Of a DNA stretch of 64,000 nt, positions 34,591 through 50,830 are shown in pieces. Where the stretch lies: positions 57,277-121,276 of the IMG/VR virus record IMGVR_UViG_3300023174_000078; one strand, written 5' to 3'. Positions within the stretch are counted from its first letter, which is position 1, and each line of letters opens with the position of its first letter. The position numbers were made by a program, and so were the translations under genes. The notes under the pieces were generated by a model that ran no database searches, had not been told where the DNA came from, and saw only the letters and a list, made by a program, of their open reading frames with translations. This stretch comes from a virus.

Positions 34591-35796
34591 ATGAGCAAAA
34601 CAGCACTAACAAAAGAGGATCTTATATCGTTTGAAAAACGTATTTGTGATTTGTACTTAGATAACAAACTTCCATTCCTATTCCATTTGTCTGGTGGTAA
34701 TGAAGACCAGTTGCTCGATATTTTTAGCAATATAGAAAAGGATGATTATGTGTTGTCTAATCACAGAAGTCATTATCATGCCTTACTGCACGGTATTCCA
34801 CCGGCTGAGCTGGAACAGAAGATCCTTGATGGGCAGAGTATGTTTATATACGACCGCGCCCGTAATTTCTTTTGTTCGGCTATTATTGGCGGTACGCCAG
34901 GCATTGCCGTTGGGATTGCGTGGGCATTGAAACAAAAAGGATCCAAACAAAAGGTATGGTGTTTTGTTGGTGACGGTACAGAAGATTCTGGACATTTGTT
35001 TGAGGCCGTGCGTTACGCAGAAGGGCTGGAGCTTCCATGTACTTTTGTAATTGAGAATAATAACCGCTCGGTGGAAACGCCTAATGAAGAGCGTTGGGGT
35101 TCTACGGGCGACATCACTTGGGAATCTCCCAGTGTGCTAAAGTATTACTACGACATCACATATCCCCACGCGCGTATGCCTGGTAAGATTGATCTCAGTA
35201 AAGCGGTCAAGAAAACTGACGAGGAGTATTTCCCACTTCTTCAAAATCCGGATTACGTGGATAGAACACAAGCGGATGAAATGAATTTATCTTATAAGGA
35301 TGCTGTGGCTCTTGCCATGAAAGAAATATCCACGCATAACGCAGTCTTTATTGGTTACAATGTGCGCAGAGGGGATGCGATGGGCACGTTGAAAGATGTG
35401 CCTATGTCTCAGAAGCTGGAGACGCCCGTGGCAGAGAACTTGATGGCGGGCTTAGCGATTGGTATGTCTTTTGAAGGTTTTATACCTGTGCTTTACTATG
35501 AACGGCATGACTTCATGCTTGTAGCCATGGACGCGATTGTTAATCATATTGATAAGATTGAGAGAATTTCGCACGGGCAATATAAAGTACCTGTTATTAT
35601 TCGCGCAGTTGTCGCGGATGGTGGGCCTTTCTACTCAGGGCCTACACATTCACAGGACTTTACTAGCGCCTTCAAATCCCTCGTCTCATTCCCGGTGCTG
35701 GATCCTGTTACAGGTAAAGATGTTTTGAATGCTTTCCGCAACGCACTAGCTAGTGGTAAACCTGCTATGATTGTAGAACGTAAAAGCAGATATTAA
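34591..35796 (+). CDS. Thiamine-diphosphate enzyme (dehydrogenase-E1/transketolase-like)
   Basis: 401 residues that combine two modules. Residues about 50-200 carry the ThDP motif GDGTEDSGHLFEAV (GDG at 127-129) ending in NNN (156-158), and the downstream YSNHRS-like VLSNHRSHYHAL as in E1-alpha chains. From about 230, a pyrimidine-binding domain (ETPVAENLMAGLAIGMSFEG with the catalytic Glu; VADGGPFYSGPTHSQDF) as in E1-beta or transketolase. The C-terminal third domain usual for these enzymes is absent. It would make or cleave a C-C bond at a keto group, for example in a branched or unusual sugar. Confidence 0.8.
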   Translation: MSKTALTKEDLISFEKRICDLYLDNKLPFLFHLSGGNEDQLLDIFSNIEKDDYVLSNHRSHYHALLHGIPPAELEQKILDGQSMFIYDRARNFFCSAIIGGTPGIAVGIAWALKQKGSKQKVWCFVGDGTEDSGHLFEAVRYAEGLELPCTFVIENNNRSVETPNEERWGSTGDITWESPSVLKYYYDITYPHARMPGKIDLSKAVKKTDEEYFPLLQNPDYVDRTQADEMNLSYKDAVALAMKEISTHNAVFIGYNVRRGDAMGTLKDVPMSQKLETPVAENLMAGLAIGMSFEGFIPVLYYERHDFMLVAMDAIVNHIDKIERISHGQYKVPVIIRAVVADGGPFYSGPTHSQDFTSAFKSLVSFPVLDPVTGKDVLNAFRNALASGKPAMIVERKSRY

Positions 35797-37217: not shown

Positions 37218-37237
37218 AAATTTCGAGAGATAGTTTA
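37207..37237 (+). repeat. 31-bp direct repeat, right copy
   Basis: Copy of 35794-35824 with one change (C for T at 37224, the first base of the tRNA-like acceptor stem). It includes the last codons of the FkbM gene and the first 14 bases of the tRNA-like gene. Confidence 0.9.
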
Positions 37238-37298
37238 AGTGGTCAGAACACGAGCAGACGTGCTGCAGGTCCAGGTTCGAGTCCTGGTCTCTCGACCA
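37224..37298 (+). tRNA. tRNA-like gene with aberrant anticodon arm
   Basis: 75 nt with encoded CCA. Perfect acceptor CGAGAGA/TCTCTCG, D-arm GTTT/GAAC with GG in the loop, T-arm CCAGG-TTCGAGT-CCTGG. But no canonical 5-bp stem with 7-nt loop fits between: the best pairing is CACG/CGTG with a six-base loop AGCAGA, or GCAG/CTGC with loop ACGTG. The anticodon cannot be assigned (GCA would be conceivable). Either a degenerate tRNA or a tRNA mimic. Confidence 0.55.
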
Positions 37299-49232: not shown

Positions 49233-49249
49233 TCCTCGTGGTATGTGTA

Positions 49250-49291
49250 TTAAGGTGGTGGTATAGTCAAATACCACCACCTTAATTTTTT
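49250..49291 (+). terminator. Strong intrinsic terminator
   Basis: TTAAGGTGGTGGTAT (49250-49264) pairs with ATACCACCACCTTAA (49271-49285), 15 bp with a 6-nt loop, then TTTTTTA. Ends the MoxR/VWA unit. Confidence 0.85.
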
Positions 49292-49315: not shown

Positions 49316-49396
49316 GCGGGTATGCGCAGAGAGGCCGAATGCACCTGTGTTACATACAGGAAATCACCGTTGGTTCGAATCCAACTACCCGTACCA
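49316..49396 (+). tRNA. tRNA-Val (anticodon UAC)
   Basis: 81 nt with encoded CCA. Acceptor GCGGGTA/TACCCGT, anticodon stem CCTGT/ACAGG with loop GTTACAT, T-arm GTTGG-TTCGAAT-CCAAC. The D-loop (AGAGAGGCCGAAT) is long and resembles class II tRNAs, and the variable region is eight bases, so the identity is less certain than for the others. Confidence 0.7.
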
Positions 49397-49699: not shown

Positions 49700-50017
49700 A
49701 TGAGTAAAAAAACACAGACTGATATTAGCGAAATGGTGGCGGTCAATCGCGTAGGTTGGGAGGCTATCAGACATAAAGATGGTTGGTGGGTTGGTACTGA
49801 CAAAGGTGTAACTTGCTACGGCGATCACCAAATTGCCCGGATGGCCCTAACTATGATTTGGCAACGTGATGGTGGTGGTCCGCTAAAGTTTAAGATTGAA
49901 AAATATACACATGTAGCCGATAAGCAAGCAACGCCTGATTACGTGCCAAAATATGGCGCTGTTGAAGCTTTACGTAATTACGAGCGACGGAAGACACGTA
50001 CGCGCGTTAAATCATGA
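49700..50017 (+). CDS. Hypothetical protein
   Basis: 105 residues, Trp/Gly/Lys-rich centre (WEAIRHKDGWWVGTDKG) and basic tail. Overlaps the next gene by 4 bp. Confidence 0.55.
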   Translation: MSKKTQTDISEMVAVNRVGWEAIRHKDGWWVGTDKGVTCYGDHQIARMALTMIWQRDGGGPLKFKIEKYTHVADKQATPDYVPKYGAVEALRNYERRKTRTRVKS

Positions 50018-50226: not shown

Positions 50227-50314
50227 GGGAAGGTGGTAGAGCGGTTTATTGCACTGGTCTTGAAAACCGGAGTGCTGCAAGGCACCGTGGGTTCGAATCC
50301 CACCCTTCCCGCCA
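50227..50314 (+). tRNA. tRNA-Ser (anticodon UGA)
   Basis: 88 nt, class II, with encoded CCA. Acceptor GGGAAGG/CCTTCCC, anticodon stem CTGGT/ACCGG with loop CTTGAAA giving TGA, long variable arm with GTGC/GCAC stem, T-arm GTGGG-TTCGAAT-CCCAC. Confidence 0.93.
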
Positions 50315-50323
50315 ATTTTAAAT

Positions 50324-50399
50324 CACAGGGTGGACAAGTGGTTAAGTCGCTTGGCTCATAACCAAGAGATCGAGGGTTCGACTCCCTCCCCTGTAACCA
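50324..50399 (+). tRNA. tRNA-Met (anticodon CAU), initiator-like
   Basis: 76 nt with encoded CCA. Acceptor positions 2-7 pair (ACAGGG/CCCTGT) while position 1 C faces position 72 A, the unpaired C1.A72 of bacterial initiator tRNA. D-stem has A11-T24 (purine-pyrimidine), also an initiator mark. Anticodon stem CTTGG/CCAAG has two, not three, consecutive G-C pairs next to the loop CTCATAA. Two of three initiator determinants are thus present. Confidence 0.85.
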
Positions 50400-50407
50400 A
50401 TTCAAGT

Positions 50408-50830
50408 ATGAGCGAAAAAGAAACACATCCACCATATCCCCCTTATGAAATTCTTCCGATAGATCCGGAAAAAAATCCGCCCGAAACAATTGAAGAATTA
50501 GAAATTCTTATAGATAAGCTGCAGGGTAAGTCTGCAAGTATTAAGCAGCAATTAGAAGTGATTGCGATTCGCGAGAAGCAGGGGCTAGCAGTAGACTATT
50601 CCAGAGTAAAACGCGCGATGTTTGCCAGGACGCAGACTAACAGATCGATTGCAGCTTTACAACGTATTGTTAAAAACAAGCGCCAGCAAGCAGCGCTTAA
50701 GTCAGGAAGCCCGTTCGAGAAATTCTTTTTCGAGGTTGCAAAGGCAAAACTTTCGGCGGATATGCTGACTGCCCTTATGGACGATGCGTTCCTTAAAATG
50801 CGAGAAGCCGAAAGATCAAACAGCGATTAA
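50408..50830 (+). CDS. Helical hypothetical protein
   Basis: 140 residues from ATG 50408, 8 bp behind the tRNA. Pro-rich N-terminus, then all helical with a coiled-coil region (IEELEILIDKLQGKSASIKQQL) and basic segments. No family recognised. Confidence 0.6.
   Translation: MSEKETHPPYPPYEILPIDPEKNPPETIEELEILIDKLQGKSASIKQQLEVIAIREKQGLAVDYSRVKRAMFARTQTNRSIAALQRIVKNKRQQAALKSGSPFEKFFFEVAKAKLSADMLTALMDDAFLKMREAERSNSD

What the first reader, a model, noticed from the sequence alone, without database searches (positions are those of the whole stretch)
50324..50399. Initiator-like tRNA encoded by the phage
The CAU tRNA has the C1.A72 mismatch and A11-U24 pair which distinguish bacterial initiator tRNA, though only two of three G-C pairs at the base of the anticodon stem. 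In a genome whose genes lack SD sites, a private initiator tRNA could help initiation on leaders of A-rich type.
Basis: partly seen in the sequence, partly recalled or inferred. Interest (0 to 1): 0.65.

Follow-up and report, generated by a model that had tools for sequence, protein, structure and literature searches.

The report
Phage-encoded initiator-type tRNA (fMet)
This virus of bacteria carries its own copy of the special tRNA that starts protein synthesis; the gene looks real and maintained, but many phages carry such a gene, and nothing found here ties it in general to this phage's lack of ribosome-binding sites.

Summary
Window 50324-50399 is an intact CAU tRNA with C1.A72, A11-U24, C3-G70, A73, G30-C40 and G31-C39. 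Position 29-41 is U-A, so two of the three G-C pairs are present; 2-71 is A-U. It scores as an initiator (37.3 against 27.9 bits); the phage's second CAU tRNA scores as an elongator (19.4 against 42.4). In nine distinct sequences (window plus eight relatives), 1:72 never pairs (C.A, U.U, A.A), while five of the other six acceptor pairs change in a compensatory way. That indicates selection for an initiator. Initiator-type tRNAs are widespread in phages (Mycobacterium, Caulobacter, Lak, Erwinia jumbo phages, many IMG/VR contigs), so this is a new member of a known kind. The phage does lack Shine-Dalgarno (SD) sites, but the proposed link is not supported in general: initiator-tRNA contigs range from SD-poor to SD-rich (pooled 34% against 13% control). 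The window's own group is SD-poor, but a shared host type would explain that too. More likely the tRNA tops up fMet-tRNA when host tRNAs are cleaved or depleted. U29-A41 was in 21 of 89 distinct viral initiators, none of 96 bacterial ones, and none of about 790 further genomes.

The parts
50324..50399 (+). Initiator-type tRNA(CAU), CCA encoded; C1.A72, A2-U71, C3-G70, A11-U24, C12-G23, A13.A22, U29-A41, G30-C40, G31-C39, A73
50227..50314 (+). tRNA-Ser(UGA) directly upstream, 9 nt gap; probably co-transcribed
   Evidence: co-transcription inferred from spacing
50408..50830 (+). Downstream ORF (140 aa from ATG 50408), starts 8 nt after the tRNA's CCA; no Pfam match, no match in the 14 related contigs searched
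49316..49396 (+). tRNA-Val(UAC), about 0.9 kb upstream in the same orientation
49249..49286 (+). Terminator-like hairpin (16 pairs) just upstream of tRNA-Val
   Evidence: consensus match only

Best explanation
Window 50324-50399 encodes a working initiator-type tRNA. Inferred course: the host methionyl-tRNA synthetase charges it through the CAU anticodon; host formyltransferase formylates it because 1:72 does not pair and A11-U24 and C3-G70 are present; host IF2 and the 30S P site accept it through the formyl group and the two remaining G-C pairs. It raises or restores the fMet-tRNA pool for viral translation, most likely when host tRNAs are degraded or cleaved during infection, together with the phage's other tRNAs. 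Shown here: gene, structure, determinants, conservation of the 1:72 mismatch, SD-poor context. Inferred: expression, charging, formylation, initiation, and the benefit during infection.
For: Determinants from the sequence, matching the published list C1xA72, G2:C71, C3:G70, A11:U24 and three G-C pairs (PMC7949028) except 2:71 and 29:41. Sequence profiles built from cellular tRNAs: 37.3 initiator against 27.9 elongator/Ile2 bits, while the phage's other CAU tRNA gives 19.4 against 42.4. Window plus eight relatives: 1:72 unpaired in 9/9 with three different mismatches; the other acceptor pairs stay paired, 5 of 6 with two-sided changes; A11-U24, G30-C40 and G31-C39 invariant (the search patterns fixed A11-U24 and the GG/CC pairs but not the acceptor stem). 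The same class recurs in isolates: Phox A1.C72, Lak-B3 U1.U72, BI-TP1 C1.A72, PA5oct C1.A72. No deformylase or formyltransferase was detected in the contig, so host enzymes would be needed.
Against: A2-U71 replaces G2-C71, which assists formylation and is G-C in 96/96 sampled bacterial initiators; U29-A41 replaces one of the three G-C pairs; A13.A22 is unpaired (C-G in 96/96 bacterial). These could lower formylation or P-site acceptance. No expression, charging or infection data. No other component of a private initiation system was seen.
Confidence: 0.72

Rival explanations
1. One reading: the private initiator tRNA specifically compensates for the absence of Shine-Dalgarno sites by promoting initiation on A-rich leaders.
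For: The phage lacks SD sites and has A-rich leaders. The closest initiator relatives with a complete predicted tRNA (same D arm, mostly U29-A41) all come from SD-poor contigs, 15/120 starts against 52/351 control.
Against: Viral initiator tRNAs are common in SD-rich contigs, and L389, L393 and L394, with the same D-stem type but three G-C pairs, are SD-rich. The closest relative of this phage (G004) is also SD-poor, but its contig ends before the tRNA region, so it cannot test the link. Shared host type explains the correlation as well. No mechanism is known.
Confidence: 0.1
2. Counter-defence variant: the tRNA is kept mainly because its altered anticodon stem (U29-A41) resists host nucleases that cut initiator tRNA (VapC type), restoring initiation after abortive cleavage.
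For: VapC toxins of several bacteria cut tRNA-fMet between anticodon stem and loop (PMC8522696), and phage tRNAs have been proposed to evade such nucleases through anticodon-loop changes (PMC10264068). U29-A41 is in 21/89 distinct viral initiators and 0/96 bacterial ones, with none in 395 Bacteroidota and 398 Pseudomonadota genomes searched by pattern.
Against: The loop itself (CUCAUAA) is unchanged from E. coli. Whether VapC reads 29:41 was not found in the papers read. PMC10264068 reports that phages generally avoided encoding tRNA-fMet where its nuclease (VapC-LT2) is present. No RNA ligase of family PF09414 was found (the PF09511 search had no working positive control). Relaxed selection could also give U29-A41.
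Confidence: 0.12
3. It is an elongator Met tRNA, or an Ile tRNA with a lysidine-modified CAU anticodon, whose 1:72 pair was lost by chance.
For: The CAU anticodon and CUCAUAA loop are shared by all three classes. The D loop (one base before GG, two after) resembles elongators. The profile margin, 9.4 bits, is modest.
Against: 1:72 is unpaired in 9/9 sequences with different bases. A11-U24 and the two G-C pairs are initiator marks. The phage already has a CAU tRNA that scores as elongator/Ile2.
Confidence: 0.04
4. It is a passenger: a remnant of a captured host tRNA gene or attachment site without function.
For: Several viral-contig hits sit at contig ends and look like host fMet genes used as integration sites. 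The 2:71, 13:22 and 29:41 changes depart from bacterial initiators.
Against: The gene is complete with CCA, lies 9 nt from tRNA-Ser and 8 nt from the next ORF in a same-strand gene set, and compensatory changes in relatives show maintenance. A D-arm pattern for this type had no match in 84,980 genomes.
Confidence: 0.05

Closest known systems
Bacterial initiator tRNA, tRNA-fMet (E. coli metZ/W/V)
   Same: CAU anticodon, C1.A72, C3-G70, A11-U24, G30-C40, G31-C39, A73, encoded CCA
   Different: A2-U71 for G2-C71, U29-A41 for G29-C41, C12-G23 and A13.A22 for G12-C23 and C13-G22, shorter D loop of another shape
Initiator-type tRNAs of other phages (Phox, Lak-B3, BI-TP1, PA5oct, CcrColossus, pEa_SNUABM_44; IMG/VR contigs)
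   Same: Viral genome, initiator marks, often within tRNA arrays; tRNA-fMet is named in Erwinia jumbo phages (PMC7760394) and in a wastewater huge phage (PMC10747093)
   Different: 1:72 is A.C, U.U or U-A in some; 29:41 G-C or A-U in others; most are annotated only as tRNA-Met or not annotated
L010/L011/L099/L118/L390/L397 initiator group in IMG/VR contigs
   Same: Same D arm, U29-A41, unpaired 1:72, SD-poor contigs
   Different: All keep G2-C71; only the window has A2-U71

Membership tests
Bacterial initiator tRNA (tRNA-fMet) | CAU anticodon in an intact cloverleaf | tested here: met
Bacterial initiator tRNA (tRNA-fMet) | No Watson-Crick pair at 1:72 | tested here: met
   C1.A72; unpaired in 9/9 sequences of the group
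Bacterial initiator tRNA (tRNA-fMet) | Purine 11 - pyrimidine 24 (A11-U24) | tested here: met
Bacterial initiator tRNA (tRNA-fMet) | Accessory formylation pairs G2-C71 and C3-G70 | tested here: inconclusive
   C3-G70 present; 2-71 is A-U, against G-C in 96/96 of the bacterial sample
Bacterial initiator tRNA (tRNA-fMet) | Three G-C pairs 29-41, 30-40, 31-39 | tested here: inconclusive
   Two of three. 20/96 bacterial initiators also lack G29-C41 (all A-U), so it is not a strict requirement
Bacterial initiator tRNA (tRNA-fMet) | Formylation and use in initiation complexes | not testable with these tools
   needs infected cells or a purified system
Elongator tRNA-Met / tRNA-Ile2 | Paired 1:72 and best match to elongator profile | tested here: not met
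   C1.A72; 27.9 elongator against 37.3 initiator bits

The most novel reading that the evidence does not exclude
Large phages share a virus-specific lineage of initiator tRNAs, marked by U29-A41 and here by C12-G23/A13.A22, that departs from cellular initiators at the P-site-read anticodon stem, either to escape initiator-tRNA nucleases or to bias initiation in infected cells of SD-independent hosts.
Probability: 0.15. Interest if true: 0.65.

Novelty: new member of a known kind. Interest (0 to 1): 0.35.

Why it matters
Phage tRNAs are usually explained by codon usage, which cannot explain an initiator tRNA that reads only start codons. Its recurrence in many phages, with a kept 1:72 mismatch of changing identity, makes phage control or rescue of initiation directly testable. 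The excess of U29-A41 in viral initiators gives a concrete marker to test nuclease escape against relaxed selection.

Tried and rejected
Absence of the tRNA in the closest relative (G004) was considered as evidence of recent gain and dropped: that contig is collinear only up to about window 38.5 kb. Two flanking proteins were searched in 14 related contigs without matches. A D-arm pattern in 84,980 genomes found no host or donor. Searches for deformylase, formyltransferase and RNA ligase were empty; PF09511 had no working positive control. Two phylum searches failed on argument form and were repeated with handles. A sigma-70 promoter scan gave fewer sites than shuffles. The host was not identified.

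Full report
What is there. The window is positions 57277-121276 of a 121,276-base IMG/VR virus record with linear ends, possibly a fragment. ARAGORN and Rfam both find a tRNA(CAU) at 50324-50399. The sequence is CACAGGG TG GACA AGTGGTTA AGTC G CTTGG CTCATAA CCAAG AGATC GAGGG TTCGACT CCCTC CCCTGTA A CCA. The gene sits 9 nt after tRNA-Ser and 8 nt before an ATG.

Is it an initiator? Published determinants are the 1:72 mismatch, G2:C71, C3:G70, A11:U24 and the three anticodon-stem G-C pairs (PMC7949028). The tRNA scored 37.3 against 27.9 bits; the phage's second CAU tRNA (record position 49780) scored 19.4 against 42.4; E. coli metZ/W/V scored 83.7 against 26.5. All other ARAGORN tRNAs of this phage pair at 1:72.

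Comparative test. Patterns confined to the D arm and anticodon arm found relatives in virus contigs. In nine distinct sequences (the window and eight others), 1:72 is unpaired in all (C.A, U.U, A.A). Five of the other six acceptor pairs show compensatory two-sided changes and the sixth is invariant. Because acceptor positions were not part of the patterns, this is an unbiased sign that an unpaired 1:72 is maintained. The pattern did fix A11-U24 and the two G-C pairs, so their invariance is no independent evidence.

How common. E. coli tRNA-fMet matches 608 of 50,697 phage records at E up to 0.1 (not all are initiators, and some hits are partial). Those fetched and read include Phox (A1.C72), Lak-B3 (U1.U72), BI-TP1 (C1.A72), pEa_SNUABM_44 (U1-A72), phiAS5 (A1-U72), CcrColossus (U1-A72), PA5oct (C1.A72) and the uncultured LR756511 (A1.A72). 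tRNA-fMet genes are named in papers on Erwinia jumbo phages (PMC7760394) and wastewater huge phages (PMC10747093). The kind is therefore known, though little studied in the papers I could search.

Viral against bacterial initiators. 29:41 is G-C 30, A-U 38, U-A 21 in viruses; G-C 76, A-U 20, U-A 0 in bacteria (Fisher p about 5e-8; sequences are not fully independent). 2:71 is G-C in 96/96 bacterial ones. 13:22 is C-G in 96/96 bacterial ones and A.A in 7 viral ones. Searching 398 Pseudomonadota genomes for U29-A41 initiators found none. In 395 Bacteroidota genomes with position 29 left open, 110 genomes matched and all listed matches have G at 29. So two of three G-C pairs is ordinary, but U29-A41 is typical of viruses. 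Some viral hits are probably host genes at prophage ends, which would dilute rather than create this difference.

The SD idea. This phage does lack SD sites. Viral loci with initiator tRNAs range from 0 to 83% SD (pooled 34% against 13% control), so carriage of an initiator is not special to SD-less phages. Within the window's own group, the contigs with a complete predicted tRNA are all SD-poor (15/120 starts against 52/351 control); three contigs with a similar D stem but three G-C pairs and an unusual core are SD-rich. A shared host type is the simpler reason. ORFs were called mechanically, so start sites carry error.

Mechanism. Most likely the tRNA supplements fMet-tRNA during infection using host charging, formylation and IF2; no deformylase or formyltransferase was found in this contig, and the contig may be incomplete. 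Codon compensation in its usual sense is unlikely because the phage also has an elongator-type CAU tRNA. Replacement of cleaved host tRNA is a proposed role of phage tRNAs (PMC10264068; PMC7824862), and VapC toxins are known to cut tRNA-fMet (PMC8522696). That U29-A41 blocks such cleavage is untested. The host is unknown.

Noticed in passing
L018:9780-9855 (record position 49780-49855, outside the window): Second CAU tRNA, elongator-like, with C4-G69 and C5-G68, so possibly the lysidine-type Ile2 tRNA; AUA codons are frequent in the phage (17.5 per 1000).
   Followed up: partly
window 37224-37295 +: tRNA-like match (Rfam 43.8 bits) not called by ARAGORN, with a good acceptor and T arm but an anticodon arm that does not fit the model; it overlaps an ORF.
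   Followed up: partly
L389, L393, L394, L392: Initiator-like tRNAs with a reduced core (AG at 8-9, short variable region), missed by ARAGORN; nearly identical in three SD-rich contigs.
   Followed up: partly
L016:1383-2981; L017:16526-18229; L018:905-3673: Long ORFs in which the close relative G004 matches only part; the first is a thymidylate synthase with an HNH endonuclease domain inside, suggesting intein-like insertions absent from G004.
   Followed up: no
window 34591-35796: Transketolase-like protein, 67% identical to one in Prochlorococcus phage P-TIM68 and widespread in environmental virus contigs.
   Followed up: no
L011:4791-5244 -: A tmRNA gene is predicted next to the initiator-type tRNA in a 45 kb virus contig.
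   Followed up: no
L219 (Bacteroides phage BI-TP1), L221 (Aeromonas phage phiAS5): Initiator-type tRNA genes not annotated in the deposited records.
   Followed up: no
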